DNA of 64,000 nucleotides, from positions 186,001-250,000 of the forward strand of contig CAMPDV010000014.1 in NCBI GenBank assembly GCA_946699065.1. Direction: 5' to 3'. The notes beneath the pieces are model-generated. The model searched no databases. It worked only from the letters and a program-made list of their open reading frames with translations, and was not told where the DNA came from. The DNA is from Loxodes magnus. Its lineage: Eukaryota; Ciliophora; Karyorelictea; Loxodida; Loxodidae. Position numbers and translations under genes: made by a program. Position 1 is the first letter of the stretch, and each line of letters begins with the position of its first letter. This document shows, in pieces, positions 1-64,000 of this stretch.

Positions 1-167
1 ACTATCTATATATACTATTAATTATTAAGGCTGATAAAAATACAAACGATGCTAGATGGATAGAAAAGAGGATAATTAATTCACTAGTAAATGTTTAATA
101 AATTAGTGATTGAGTGTAGCAGATTATATATAACCTTATAGACAAATTAATTAGGAACTGTTTTTAC

Positions 168-1403
168 TCATAGTAACTATATCTCACTCAAGTCTGATGG
201 AAGTTCTTGAATTTCTGTATCATAGTACTTCTCTAATGTCTTTAGGAAATTCGCTTCTCCCACTGTTACAAAATTTATCGCCACTCCCTTCTTTCCATAT
301 CTACCGCTTCTCCCAATTCTATGCAAGTATGTTTCAAAATTTAGTGGCATATCATAGTTTATTACTAGACTAACCTAGGTTACGTCTATTCCTCTTGCAA
401 GTAAATCTGTTGAAATAAGCACTCTTGTATTACCTCTTCGAAACTATTCCATGGTTGTACTTCTTTAACTAAAGTCTAAATTTCCATGAATCTGAGAAAT
501 AGTATGGTAGTTCTCAGTCATTTTACTAGCAAGTCATTCAACAGTTTACTTTTAATTGCAATAGATGATTGCCTGATTTATATCCAGCTGCTCATAAAGA
601 TCATTTATTATTTCGTATTTCCATTCTTATCTCTCAATAGCGATATAATACTAAGCTATTCCCTCTAGGGTTAAATTTTCTTTCTTTACTAGTATTGTTG
701 CTGGTTCTCGCATGAACTGTTGTGTAATTTCCATTATCTCCTCGTTCATGGTTGCTGAAAACAAGCAGACTTGAATATTTCCTGGCAAATTGAGAAAAAT
801 TTCTTTCAGCTATTATCGAAATCCTTATGAAAGCATTAAATCAGCTTCATCAACGACCATTATCTTTGTATACTTAATATCCAAAATTTTTCTCTAAATT
901 AGATCGAAAATTCTCCCAGGAGTTCCAACAACCACTTATTATCCCTTTTACAAATCGCTTATTGTTTCTGATATCTTTCTGCCTCCAACACAAGCAGTTG
1001 ATCGTATGTTCATATATTGACCAATCGATTGAACTACTTTATTTATTTACAAAGCTAGTTCTCTAGTAGGTGATAGTATTAGGCCTTAGCACTCCAAACT
1101 ATCTGTACTTATTATTTATAAGAGTCCTATAACAAAAGTAGCAGTCTTTCCAGACCCGGACTATGCTTGTGCGATTGTATCCTTTCCAGCTATAATAGGT
1201 TGAATTCCGATTTTTTAGATGGGTGATGGTTTTTCAAATCCATATGAATAAATTCCTCTCAGTAAGTTTTCTTTTAAATTCATCGAGTCAAAATCCTGAT
1301 AATTTAGATTAGATTTTCAACCTTTTTGATAGAAAAACTCTATTTCTTAATCCTTCTACTCACTTTCACTCCTCATTTCGCTTTATTTAAACATTTTATT
1401 CAT
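168..1403 (-). CDS. EIF4A: eIF4A-type DEAD-box RNA helicase
   Basis: ATP-dependent RNA helicase of the eIF4A/FAL1 family, the translation-initiation or exon-junction helicase. About 411 residues in one exon, matching the family length. Motifs in order: Q-motif region '[10 protein letters not shown]', motif I AQSGSGKT, Ia PTRELALQ, GG, TPGR, motif II DEAD (in VVDEADLML), motif III SAT (LFSATMNEE), motif [11 protein letters not shown] and motif [10 protein letters not shown]. Numerous TAA/TAG codons stand at Gln positions, and a TGA near the N terminus reads as Trp. The start is the first of three in-frame ATGs (1403; another at 1376). Family members end in a short D-L-I type tail. Here the tail '..SDLSEI' is followed by TAG (177-179) and, two codons later, by TGA (168-170), so the true stop may be the TAG. 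The eIF4A versus eIF4A-III assignment is not settled. Confidence 0.95.
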
Positions 1404-59900: not shown

Positions 59901-62900
59901 GAAATTAAGCTTTACATAGCATTTTCAGCTTACTTAACATGATTCCTTATATCTTTGTCAAATGGGAACTATACTTCTGCCATTTCTTTGGTTATTGCTA
60001 CTAATTCATGTTCTGCCTAAGTTTGAATGCTCATATTAATGTTCCTCCATTTAGAGGAGGTTAAGCTCATAAAAGGAACTAGCAGTCTGATATAGGCTTA
60101 GTCACTGTTAAGCATAGTCTTAATTTCAAAATCGTTGTTAGTTATCTCAGCGTTCATTGAAAGTCCTTGTACGTAATCCAGTGTCTTAGTTAATTCAAAG
60201 ATCTAGGTTTCGTTCAAGCTTGATTTGATCTTAATTTGCTCGCTTGTTATAGAGGAAGACAAGATGTTCGTTTTAGGGTCTAAGCAATATTTGTTTATTT
60301 CAGATGAGAACAAAGGCAAGTTAGGTTGAAATAACTTTTCTACTAGAGATTTGAAATTGCCTTTGAATATGTTTTTCAAGTAGAGGAAAATATGCTCTTA
60401 GTTGTATTTCTTAAACAGTAGCACTAACTCTGCTACTACTAAACAGGTAAAGAAACTCTCATCTAGAGAGCAATTATCTCTATCCTCAGGAAAAGCTTAT
60501 GAAGGAAGATTCAGTAGACTAAATAAGAATTAAGACAGTTCTTTAGGCTGAAAGTTCTAGTAGCATTCTTTAAAGGTCAAGTAATTCAAAATTTCCATAT
60601 AAAAGAAGGATTGCTTTTTGTTCTCGCTAGTAAGCTTTTCGCTTTCAATTGCTATTCCTCTCAAAGTAATGTTCAATATACTTCTGAGTACAATTGCTTT
60701 TGAGTCTTTGTTTGGTTCAATGAAGAATAGTATACTCATCCTAGCGCATATTTCTATCAACTTGAAGATTGAATGTGGGAACATCTGATTAGTGAAACAA
60801 CCATCGTATAGTATAGTTAGCTTCTCAACAGTATAAATGAAGTTCTCAATATTTTTGACTGGGCATTAATACTAAGCTATATAGATCTACTCCACTATAT
60901 TGTTTACTAGCTACATTGTTACATTTAGGCTCACTCTGCCAAATCATAGCAAGAAGTTGTTTACTTTCTCATATGTATTTGTATGATTTAGCAAAGCTTT
61001 GAATAGCAGTGCTGATAAGAAATCTATAGCGAACTATTTTTAGTCTGTACAAGGAGTCTTTAAGATGTAGAAGGTCTAGTAATCGAAAATACATTCAAAT
61101 TTTTGGTCTATAGACTACTCGATATCCTTTAAAATAGTTTTCTGAAGTTCTTCATCGCAAGAATTGAACCTTTTCAGTATGATGCTATGAATTTATTGAT
61201 ATAACTCTTTGTTTTCTTCTTAATTAAGTTGGGAGCAATTTCTTAGATCTTGATAAACCTGAAGAGAAAGTTTGTTGTGTAAACTGAAATCTACGATAGC
61301 AATGAACACTTTAATCTATTCTAGGAAAGAACCTTAATCTTCTCCACCTAGAATGTAACTCAAAGCTATACTGAAAACAGTTGATGATTTCTCAGACTAT
61401 CCTTATTTCATAATTGACTGAATCAACTAGAGACTCTATTGAAACACTCCTGCTTAAATAAGCCAAATTATAACATGTTCATGATCGTATTTAGCTAGTA
61501 ATCCTCTATTGGATAGATTGTAAAGTATTTCAGCGAAATCTTCCAAGTCTTTGCTTCTATTTTGATAGAATCCAATGAACTTTATAATTTCATCTATTTC
61601 ACCTTCAGTAGCATTCTTGCTCATCAGTTCGATTATCATTTCTTTTAAAATAGTCCTTATTTTGCTATTTCCTGGTCTATTATGCTTCTATGAGAAATAT
61701 TTCTGCAGAATTCGCAAAATTTTTCTCACTCCTTGGTCATCTCTAAAATTAGCTGGAGAGCTTTCCTTTATAAGAGAAACTAAATTTTAAAGTAAGTTAG
61801 CATCACAATTGATTCATATATCGAAGTCCAATAAAATCTTGGTATACACTTTTAGCGCCATTTCCCCATTCCATTTTAAATTATCCTAAAGCCCATAGAG
61901 TAATTAAACATGGTTCATTGTTAGAAGGTGAGAGTTAGTTGCTAGAGCAAAGGCTAATGTTTCAGTGTTTTCTTGTAAGAAATCAATGGCGTCTGCATTT
62001 GGTTGCTTTAGAACCTCAGATATAATGAATAGATTAAGTTCTATTATTTATGTAAACTATTCTCGGTTTTAAATGAGGGAAGAATCCAACAGGCGGATTA
62101 AGCGTTTGCAGCCATCTATTCTCATAAATTTCAGATTGAAGTTAGAACAGCGAATGACCATACAACCGTTCTCCAAAAATGCTAGTGATGGATCAAGGTA
62201 GTTTTACTAAGCATAAACCTATCCATATACTTGCTCAATTGCATGCTCGATTTAATCAGGGTTTGAATTTTCGCTTATCTAGTTTTCATTTTCAGATGCT
62301 GGAGATCAATTTCTAAATATTTTTTAATTCAATTCTACAGGCACATCTAGTCTGTCTTTTATGTCTAAGCTCTTCTTCTATAACAAAACGTCCAAATCCG
62401 CATCTTTTTCAACTAAGTTAAAACTTCGGTTGTATGAAAATCCAAGAGAATGTAGTTTTGTAGCTTGCTGTAATGATAAGGCGATTTCAAAGATATAGAT
62501 ATGAGTCATTTAACCTAAGAAAGGCATAGAAAGCTCACTATCGTTTCCAAATCTATTTTCCATAAAAATCCAGTTCTGATATTTAACTTTTTAGGTCTTC
62601 TAATTTGATTTCTACTCAATATAGTAGTTTTAGCCGTTTATGAAGCAAGTTACTGGATATTTGTTATTGTTAATTAGTTTGTTCTGAAAATGAACAAAGC
62701 AGATAGAGTACCACTTTTTTTCTTCAAACTGAAAATCGATTACGAAGCTTCAGATATTCTTTTTACCATCGTAAGTATACTTTAGCTTTCTATTTTCGTC
62801 TATCAAAAGTTACAAACTTTTCTTTTCTTAATCAGTAAAGGAAAAAATAGCCATTTACTTTGTCTTTTTGAACTCCTCAATTCTAATCCAGGTGAAGAAC

Positions 62901-64000
62901 GAAAACTACTTTTTAGGCCATTTTAAGCATTCTTTTATATTTAGAAAGCTGTCTTTACTGAAGTGAAACATAGCATCTGGTTTGATTTCCGAGGAGCACA
63001 TTTTTAAGAGGCTTGTTAGTAATAACGTAAGCAGCTTAATCTTATTTTAAGCAGCTGTTTTATCAGTCTATTTACCTGTCAAGCTATAATAAACATTCTC
63101 AATGTTGCTTAGGATTTAATTAATCTCGTTCACTTCTAAATGCTATGAAAAAAGACTTAGAAGTTCTATTGTCTAATTTTACACTTTTGTATTACCTGTT
63201 TTTTCTAATAACTCCAGCAAAAGCTAAATTTTGTTAGTTTGACTTGCAAGGTAAGGATTGAGGTAATTATGCTTCACTATACAAATCAGTTGCTCAATGA
63301 AGAACTCTTAGTTCTTATCTCTGTAGAGATCTATTAGTACTCTGAGTATCAGTTCCCATACTTCTATAGTTTGTATTTCTCTGCTTAGATTGGAGTCTAG
63401 TAGTATAGTCATTAGATTTTGCATTAAGTGAACAAACTCTTCACCCTGTTCTAGTCTCTTTGACATGAAAATCTGATTTATGAACTGAGTCAGCTTATTC
63501 CATCCGATTTAGGTGTTGAAGCTATTTTTTAAGTCCTTATTCTTGAATAAGAGCTTTTAGATAAGAAGCAAGCTTTCATTCATTAGCTTAATTTTAAAAT
63601 TCTGCCTCCAGTCTTCACATTTAAAGCACATGAACAGAACATCGAATATATCAGTATTTAGGGCTTTTTAATACTTTTTCAGCTTGTTATTATAATGAGC
63701 TTAGTCTAGGATATTCTATAGAGTCTAGATAAGCTCTATTAACACTTCTTCGCTATTTTAAATCGTAAGCGTGTTCTTGATACTTTTCCTATAGTACTTG
63801 AGTATCTATTTCAGCTACTCTTTGTTATTAGCTACCTTAAGAAGTTTCATTATTTACTGAGTTACAAACTAAGTGTTTTTATACAGCAGCTTAAAGAAGA
63901 ATTGTTTCAAGAACTTGTTATTTGAGATAAGAGAAGATGAGATCTCAGGTCTATCCAGTAGATTGGAGATGAAGATTTGGATATTAAGAGCGTTCTCCTC
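56903..64000 (-). CDS. BEACH-domain protein (neurobeachin/LRBA family), 5' truncated by window edge
   Basis: C-terminal 2,365 residues of a giant scaffold for membrane trafficking; the gene runs off the right edge. Single open frame with no intron for 7.1 kb. Armadillo-like helical region at 64000 to about 62900. ConA/LamG-like domain at about 62850-62450 ([39 protein letters not shown]). A second helical region follows, then PH-BEACH at about 59350-58950 ([20 protein letters not shown]). BEACH domain at about 58900-58040 ([69 protein letters not shown]). C-terminal WD40 repeats at about 57950-56910 ([16 protein letters not shown]). TGA codes the Trp of FPWIIA (58742-58744) and TGA 56903-56905 terminates. 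Confidence 0.95.

What the first reader, a model, noticed from the sequence alone, without database searches (positions are those of the whole stretch)
1..64000. All three canonical stop codons are sense codons in this genome
Seen: TAA and TAG occur in frame dozens of times per gene at Gln positions of eIF4A, HID1, dynein, CDK, NDR, TBC and BEACH proteins, and TGA occurs in frame at Trp positions. Known: only a few nuclear codes do this (Condylostoma table 28; karyorelicts table 27 with UGA stop or Trp). Inference: this window belongs to such a ciliate, and standard annotation would shred every gene in it.
Basis: partly seen in the sequence, partly recalled or inferred. Interest (0 to 1): 0.93.

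Follow-up and report, generated by a model that had tools for sequence, protein, structure and literature searches.

The report
Ciliate reading all stop codons
This DNA comes from a single-celled ciliate, almost certainly the published Loxodes magnus genome, in which two of the usual stop signals spell glutamine and the third spells either tryptophan or stop depending on where it sits; the code is real and strange but already described.

Summary
Under the standard code the window has no open frame of 250 codons; with TAA/TAG read through, a dynein frame of 3,469 codons appears. With every stop masked, homologue columns recover 60 of 60 scorable standard codons and assign TAA=Gln, TAG=Gln, TGA=Trp. 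Solved structures put Trp opposite TGA in CDK1, eIF4A-I, CBK1, a calmodulin-domain kinase and TBC. Elsewhere in the genome one dynein column is TGA in 4 and TGG in 24 of 28 paralogues.

One refinement: TGA is also the stop. Dynein and HID1 end at TGA where their homologues end; the other five models were placed at TGA, two of them ambiguously. That fits NCBI table 27 (karyorelicts), not Condylostoma's table 28. Dynein is sister to heterotrichs, introns are 17-22 nt, and the assembly has 705,730,643 bases, matching the 706-Mbp Loxodes magnus macronuclear assembly. [quoted passage not shown] Glutamine suppressor tRNAs could not be checked.

Verdict: true, well supported, already known.

The parts
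168..1403 (-). eIF4A-type DEAD-box helicase; 15 TAA, 8 TAG, 2 TGA in frame; modelled to end at TGA 168-170 (a TAG lies 3 codons earlier, so this end is ambiguous)
   Evidence: Pfam DEAD/Helicase_C; PDB eIF4A-I E 2.6e-126; models
534..536 (-). sense TGA opposite the Trp of VDWL in eIF4A-I
6191..8269 (+). HID1 gene, two introns; 16 TAA, 13 TAG, 2 TGA in frame; ends at TGA 8267-8269, level with the C-terminus of 4 of 5 homologues
   Evidence: Pfam Hid1; models and alignment
7918..7936 (+). 19-nt intron in HID1
   Evidence: reading frame and homologue alignment
8172..8188 (+). 17-nt intron in HID1
9460..10326 (-). cyclin-dependent kinase; 10 TAA, 5 TAG, 1 TGA in frame; modelled to end at TGA 9460-9462 (a TAG lies 7 codons later, so this end is ambiguous)
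   Evidence: PDB CDK1 E 2.7e-86
9829..9831 (-). sense TGA opposite the Trp of VVTLWYR in CDK1
15534..28209 (+). axonemal dynein heavy chain (5' end not determined); 108 TAA, 69 TAG, 4 TGA in frame; ends at TGA 28207-28209, where 67 of 70 homologues have ended
15897..15899 (+). sense TGA, column Trp in 49 of 62 homologues
15969..15971 (+). sense TGA, column Trp in 43 of 54 homologues
27603..27624 (+). 22-nt intron in dynein
28021..28041 (+). 21-nt intron in dynein
40025..41497 (+). NDR-type kinase; 12 TAA, 11 TAG, 3 TGA in frame; modelled to end at TGA 41495-41497
   Evidence: PDB CBK1 E 2.7e-96
40913..40915 (+). sense TGA opposite Trp of CDWWS in CBK1
41006..41008 (+). sense TGA opposite Phe in CBK1
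41153..41155 (+). sense TGA opposite Trp of GVDW in CBK1
43774..43776 (-). sense TGA in a second kinase (within 42895-45069 -), opposite Trp of VWSAG in calmodulin-domain protein kinase 1 (9d8s)
47200..49290 (+). predicted coiled-coil protein gene; 30 TAA, 36 TAG, 2 TGA in frame; modelled to end at TGA
   Evidence: codon model and frame only, no Pfam match
54503..55402 (-). TBC (Rab-GAP) domain; 5 TGA, 8 TAA, 12 TAG in frame; gene limits not worked out
   Evidence: Pfam TBC; PDB alignments; counts
54887..54889 (-). sense TGA opposite Trp in the 4 TBC structures shown (7 matched)
56903..64000 (-). BEACH/neurobeachin-like gene, cut by the window edge; 65 TAA, 54 TAG, 6 TGA in frame; modelled to end at TGA 56903-56905
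   Evidence: models
58742..58744 (-). sense TGA, column Trp in 44 of 44 homologues
61814..61816 (-). sense TGA, column Trp in 43 of 43 homologues with a residue there (44 aligned)

Best explanation
The window is nuclear (macronuclear) DNA of a karyorelict ciliate, almost certainly Loxodes magnus, which uses NCBI table 27. TAA and TAG mean glutamine. TGA means tryptophan inside a gene and stop at its end. Shown here: the three sense meanings; TGA as the end of dynein and HID1 by homology; no sense TGA within the last 100 codons of seven gene models; AT-rich sequence just after the stops; and tRNA-Trp(CCA) genes with a 4-bp anticodon stem in the same genome. Inferred from published work: TAR are read by dedicated tRNA-Gln; the 4-bp-stem tRNA-Trp(CCA) reads TGA; close to the poly-A tail of a very short 3' UTR, eRF1 wins the competition and TGA terminates.
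For: Column test with stops masked: 60 of 60 scorable standard codons recovered, TAA Q +58.2 (next E -35.9, 137 columns), TAG Q +44.8 (next K -51.3, 90 columns), TGA W +11.1 (next Y -7.1, 9 columns). Trp opposite TGA in PDB relatives. Within-genome test on 28 dynein AAA1 domains: one column TGA in 4, TGG in 24. Ends: dynein TGA where 67 of 70 homologues have ended, HID1 TGA level with 4 of 5 homologues, both eRF1 paralogues ...DEDFL-TGA. Last 20 codons of seven models: TGA 0 (0.3 expected), TAA 1 (3.9), TAG 3 (3.0). GC 31-35% in coding sequence, 16-26% in the next 50 nt. Introns 17, 19, 21, 22 nt against a published mode of 17 and mean of 19.3 for L. magnus and 15-16 for heterotrichs. Dynein tree: sister to a 10-member clade holding Stentor and Blepharisma; support 1.0 for the ten and for the eleven. 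Assembly 705,730,643 bases against 706 Mbp published. 4-bp-stem tRNA-Trp(CCA) in 3 of 3 array copies read in full.
Against: Half of the internal TGA in dynein and BEACH, both in HID1 and one of two in eIF4A are not at Trp columns, though most of these columns are variable. TGA as the only stop is firmly fixed for just two window genes: I placed the other five ends at TGA, and eIF4A has a TAG 3 codons before and CDK a TAG 7 codons after the modelled stop. The tRNA-Gln(UUA/CUA) were not seen: the searches did not complete (last try). No transcript, ribosome or peptide data were used.
Confidence: 0.95

Rival explanations
1. Condylostoma-type code (table 28): all three codons are sense and each of them also terminates near transcript ends.
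For: All three are sense; a heterotrich-related ciliate. The ends of eIF4A and CDK could in principle be the nearby TAG.
Against: The two ends fixed by homology are TGA; TAG persists in the last 20 codons at its normal rate; introns are 17-22 nt, not 15-16; the dynein lies outside the heterotrich clade.
Confidence: 0.03
2. Tetrahymena-type code (table 6): TAR = Gln, TGA is stop only, and the in-frame TGA are introns, pseudogene lesions or errors.
For: TGA is rare in frame (0.22%) and ends genes.
Against: TGA falls exactly on invariant Trp positions with unbroken flanking homology in several unrelated genes and in 4 of 28 dynein paralogues at one Trp column.
Confidence: 0.01
3. A different lineage that evolved the table 27 code on its own, as Amoebophrya sp. 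ex Karlodinium veneficum did.
For: The code pattern alone cannot tell lineages apart (PMC6394959 abstract).
Against: Dynein groups with ciliates as sister to heterotrichs, support 1.0, away from Vitrella and the named dinoflagellate (Effrenium) sequences; assembly size equals L. magnus.
Confidence: 0.01

Closest known systems
Karyorelict nuclear code, NCBI table 27 (Loxodes magnus; Parduczia sp.)
   Same: TAR = Gln, TGA = Trp or stop, TGA and TAA thinned out before the stop, AT-rich 3' flank, introns of about 17-22 nt, 4-bp-stem tRNA-Trp(CCA)
   Different: Nothing that I could establish; sense TGA is 0.22% of codons here against 0.120% reported for Parduczia (PMC4967479 passage)
Condylostoma magnum code, table 28
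   Same: All three codons are sense with the same amino acids
   Different: There TAA and TAG terminate as well (PMC4967479 passages); here the two ends fixed by homology are TGA
Amoebophrya sp. ex Karlodinium veneficum
   Same: TAR = Gln, TGA = Trp, TGA apparently the sole stop (PMC6394959 abstract); 4-bp-stem tRNA-Trp (PMC12005148 passages)
   Different: A dinoflagellate relative; the dynein here is a ciliate's
Blastocrithidia nonstop, table 31
   Same: All three stops reassigned; 4-bp-stem tRNA-Trp(CCA) reads UGA (PMC12005148 passages)
   Different: UAR = Glu there and UAA doubles as stop (abstract of PMC12153298 in the listing); here TAR columns score Gln

Membership tests
NCBI table 27 (karyorelict code) | UAA and UAG encode Gln | tested here: met
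   Masked-column scores, 137 TAA and 90 TAG columns
NCBI table 27 (karyorelict code) | UGA encodes Trp within genes | tested here: met
   not every TGA is at a conserved Trp column
NCBI table 27 (karyorelict code) | UGA acts as a stop | tested here: met
   Dynein and HID1 by homology; both eRF1 paralogues
NCBI table 27 (karyorelict code) | UGA is the only stop (UAR never terminate) | tested here: inconclusive
   No TAR end was needed in 7 models, but 5 ends were placed at TGA by me and 2 of these have a TAR close by; a wider test on dynein C-termini did not complete
NCBI table 27 (karyorelict code) | Sense UGA depleted close to the stop | tested here: inconclusive
   0 of 20 sense TGA within 100 codons of a stop, but only 6 of 117 TGG are; right direction, too few
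NCBI table 27 (karyorelict code) | tRNA-Gln with UUA and CUA anticodons | not tested
   UUA search unanswered every time; CUA search unanswered once
NCBI table 27 (karyorelict code) | tRNA-Trp(CCA) with 4-bp anticodon stem (reported for Loxodes in PMC13092985) | tested here: met
   3 of 3 array copies read in full; whether it reads UGA is not testable here, and a tRNA-Trp(UCA) was not excluded
Karyorelictea | Sister position to heterotrichs among ciliates | tested here: met
   Dynein tree, 71 sequences; one gene only, 8 of the 10 neighbours unnamed
Karyorelictea | SSU rRNA identity | not tested
   Search unanswered
Loxodes magnus macronuclear assembly | Assembly size 706 Mbp | tested here: met
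   705,730,643 bases in 7,843 contigs; paper 706 Mbp
Loxodes magnus macronuclear assembly | Introns mean 19.3, mode 17 nt | tested here: met
   Four introns of 17, 19, 21, 22 nt; few
NCBI table 28 (Condylostoma) | UAA and UAG also act as stops | tested here: not met
   Neither of the two ends fixed by homology; for the other five models not decisive
NCBI table 6 (Tetrahymena type) | UGA is never sense | tested here: not met

The most novel reading that the evidence does not exclude
UGA decoding in this genome may be set by tRNA dosage. The 4-bp-stem tRNA-Trp(CCA) stands in head-to-tail arrays (48 matches on contig C67, at least 41 on C148; three read in full), while two 5-bp-stem versions were seen as single genes on C110. 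Meanwhile sense UGA is spread unevenly: 0 of 74 Trp codons in the dynein motor against 20 of 63 in the rest of the seven gene models, with no such gap for UAR. That would fit a codon that is tolerated only where the risk of early termination is cheap. Weak points: tRNA-Lys and tRNA-Ala also sit in tandem arrays here, the assembly is rich in tandem repeats, other dyneins of this genome do use TGA at a conserved Trp, and the dynein comparison was made after seeing the data.
Probability: 0.2. Interest if true: 0.45.

Novelty: already known. Interest (0 to 1): 0.16.

Why it matters
Codes without a dedicated stop codon show that termination can be set by position and not by codon identity, and they test how codons change meaning. 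This window is a clean example in which both meanings of UGA can be seen in single genes, but the phenomenon, the organism and the candidate tRNA are already in print. Its practical value is as a warning: annotation with the standard code finds no long frame here.

Tried and rejected
Rejected readings: table 28 (ends, introns and tree against), table 6 (TGA at invariant Trp), introns hiding the TGA (flanking homology is unbroken), pseudogenes (long intact frames, several unrelated genes, 28 dynein domains). Dead ends: no tRNA and no Rfam family in the window; no match in the phage collection; the BEACH protein search gave no useful taxonomy because only the 8000 candidates sharing most words were scored; the HID1 search found only 5 relatives. 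In some searches several segments were given in the wrong frame by my own slip and found nothing; the slipped ones were repeated in the right frame. Pfam scans of 28.4-36.4 kb and 49.3-56.9 kb in six frames added a Myb domain, an EF-hand pair and the TBC domain; the rest of the window was scanned only in the frames that the codon model picked. The L032 hit of the eRF1 search reads like pelota (label recalled), not eRF1. My first thought that dyneins avoid TGA was weakened.
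Full report
Observation. The window is 64 kb at 31% G+C with no standard-code stop-to-stop frame of 250 codons or more; with only TGA as stop there are 37, the longest 3,469 codons with 82 TAA and 54 TAG. A codon model and Pfam scans with all three stops written as X or read as Q/Q/W locate eIF4A, an RRM protein, HID1, CDK, dynein heavy chain, an NDR-type kinase, a second kinase, TBC, an EF-hand pair, a Myb domain and BEACH.

Meaning of the codons. I aligned the masked dynein and BEACH translations with 70 and 44 homologues, thinned from 120 each by shared words, and scored, for each codon, which amino acid its columns prefer. All 60 standard codons that could be scored came out right. 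TAA and TAG came out Gln with wide margins, TGA came out Trp with a modest margin on 9 columns; the 4 TGA columns conserved at 70% or more are all W, against 71 W among 1,741 conserved columns. Of 10 internal TGA in these two genes, W is the commonest residue at 5; the other 5 fall on variable or non-W columns or have no homologue residue. Solved structures, aligned with stops masked, show W opposite TGA in eIF4A-I (1 of 2 TGA; the other, in a loose N-terminal stretch, faces V), CDK1 (1 of 1), CBK1 (2 of 3; the third faces F) and calmodulin-domain protein kinase 1 (1 of 1). In TBC one of three aligned TGA faces W in the 4 structures shown; another faces Y in all four, and the third I, I, F, W. 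HID1's two TGA face F and L/S.

Genome-wide check. When the genome search answered, it returned 42 matches to the dynein AAA1 domain. I used the 28 full-length matches with the best E-values (L035-L062) and left out 14 weaker or partial ones; the left-out rows list 15 TGA in all, several in fragments on contig C19 that look degraded, and were not examined by column. In the 28 (9,236 codons) there are 234 TAA, 87 TAG, 6 TGA, 119 CAA, 39 CAG and 42 TGG. At one alignment column 4 paralogues have TGA and the other 24 have Trp; the other 2 TGA are at variable columns.

Where translation stops. Two ends are fixed by homology: dynein ends at a TGA where only 3 of 70 homologues still have a residue, and its last TAR is a Gln 12 codons earlier inside conserved sequence; HID1 ends at a TGA level with 4 of 5 homologues, the last TAR 64 codons earlier. 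Both eRF1 paralogues of the genome run to ...DEDFL-TGA, with another TGA 3 codons on. The other five models were placed at TGA by me. In eIF4A a TAG stands 3 codons before the modelled TGA, right where the eIF4A-I chain ends, and in CDK a TAG stands 7 codons after it, so these two could in principle end at TAG; BEACH, NDR and the coiled-coil gene were ended at the first suitable TGA, with the next TAR 15, 16 and 8 codons on. In the last 20 codons of the seven models there are 0 TGA (0.3 expected), 1 TAA (3.9) and 3 TAG (3.0), which resembles the published pattern in L. magnus, where UGA and UAA but not UAG are depleted. The nearest sense TGA is 114 codons from a stop; 6 of 117 TGG are within 100 codons, so this alone proves little. 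The 50 nt after the stops are 16-26% G+C against 31-35% in the coding sequences; the paper gives 18.6% for 3' UTRs and 33.5% for coding sequence.

Which organism. Two genes show four introns of 17, 19, 21 and 22 nt. The L. magnus paper gives mean 19.3, mode 17, and 15-16 nt for heterotrichs (section 9 read whole). A midpoint-rooted tree of 71 dynein sequences puts the window's protein as sister to 10 sequences that include Stentor and Blepharisma; support is 1.0 for the ten and for the eleven, and the next branch holds Tetrahymena and Paramecium. Eight of the ten are unnamed. From what I recall, that is the place of the Karyorelictea; the paper too calls heterotrichs their sister group. The window is contig C14:186001-250000 of an assembly of 705,730,643 bases in 7,843 contigs; the paper reports 706 Mbp for the macronuclear assembly (passages). 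I take the genome to be that of Loxodes magnus; it is not named in the tools, and the SSU rRNA search did not complete.

Machinery. The genome has two eRF1 paralogues (L033, L034) that keep NIKS but read RAQNIKS and FLCENTF where, as I recall, most eukaryotes have TASNIKS and YxCxxxF. A pattern for tRNA-Trp(CCA) hit 153 places (75 for the reversed control); the first 100 are listed, and 89 of them are one identical 30-mer in arrays on C67 (48 copies, about 187 nt apart) and C148 (41 listed, most about 241 nt apart). Of six stretches read in full, five fold as tRNA-Trp(CCA): the three from the arrays have a 4-bp anticodon stem (top pair A.C or T.C), the two from C110 a 5-bp stem; the sixth is not a tRNA. 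A 4-bp-stem tRNA-Trp(CCA) of other species raises UGA readthrough in reporters, and such a tRNA has been reported in Loxodes (PMC13092985, passages, citing Swart et al., eLife RP93502, not held). The tRNA-Gln for UAA and UAG and a tRNA-Trp(UCA) could not be sought: those searches did not complete (last tries).

Comparison with what is known. Section 9 of PMC11441545 states that karyorelicts including Loxodes use table 27, with UGA the only stop and also Trp. PMC4967479 (passages) described Parduczia and Condylostoma, with 0.120% and 0.042% UGA; here it is 20 of 9,140, 0.22%. PMC6394959 (abstract and section 19) and PMC12005148 (passages) describe the same code in Amoebophrya. Seah et al. 2022 (Peer Community Journal) is cited in PMC11441545; I did not see it. 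The finding is therefore correct and already known, and table 27, not 28, is the better label.

Side observation. In the seven gene models TGA makes 0 of 74 Trp codons in the dynein motor and 20 of 63 elsewhere (Fisher p = 2.6e-8), while nine other A/G-ending pairs differ little (p 0.03-0.46), and the TAR share of Gln is the same in dynein and the other genes (62% and 64%). The comparison was made after seeing the data, and 28 dynein AAA1 domains use TGA for 6 of 48 TGR codons, so it is a lead and not a result. Four searches of the paper library touched this or the tRNA (up to 20 titles and abstract openings seen of 880, 57, 1 and 235 papers); none of the listed items was on it, which does not show that it is unpublished.

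Noticed in passing
G000 contig C67:482323-491201 and C148:155464-166726: Head-to-tail arrays of tRNA-Trp(CCA) genes with a 4-bp anticodon stem: 48 identical pattern matches on C67 and at least 41 on C148 (list cut at 100 of 153). Three copies read in full; array length could be affected by assembly.
   Followed up: partly
G000 contigs C64, C78, C93 (loci L010-L026) and C103: tRNA-Lys and tRNA-Ala genes are also repeated, for example tRNA-Lys about every 1,753 nt on C78. C103 holds tRNA-family matches 527 nt apart whose anticodons were not called.
   Followed up: no
window 17634-28209 (dynein motor) against the other genes: Sense TGA is missing from the dynein motor (0 of 74 Trp codons) but makes 20 of 63 elsewhere in the seven models, while TAR use is even. 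Other dyneins of the genome do use TGA.
   Followed up: partly
L033 and L034 (G000 contig C196): Two very similar eRF1 genes about 35 kb apart, NIKS kept but preceded by RAQ, and FLCENTF in place of the usual YxCxxxF motif (motifs recalled).
   Followed up: partly
window 35250-35430 -: Myb-like DNA-binding domain in a gene whose limits were not worked out.
   Followed up: no
window 51721-51903 -: EF-hand pair, probably a separate calcium-binding protein gene near the TBC gene.
   Followed up: no
window 36817-38778 +: Long coding-like frame without any Pfam match.
   Followed up: no
G000 contig C19:848237-931238: Cluster of partial dynein AAA1 matches with several TGA inside, perhaps pseudogenes.
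   Followed up: no
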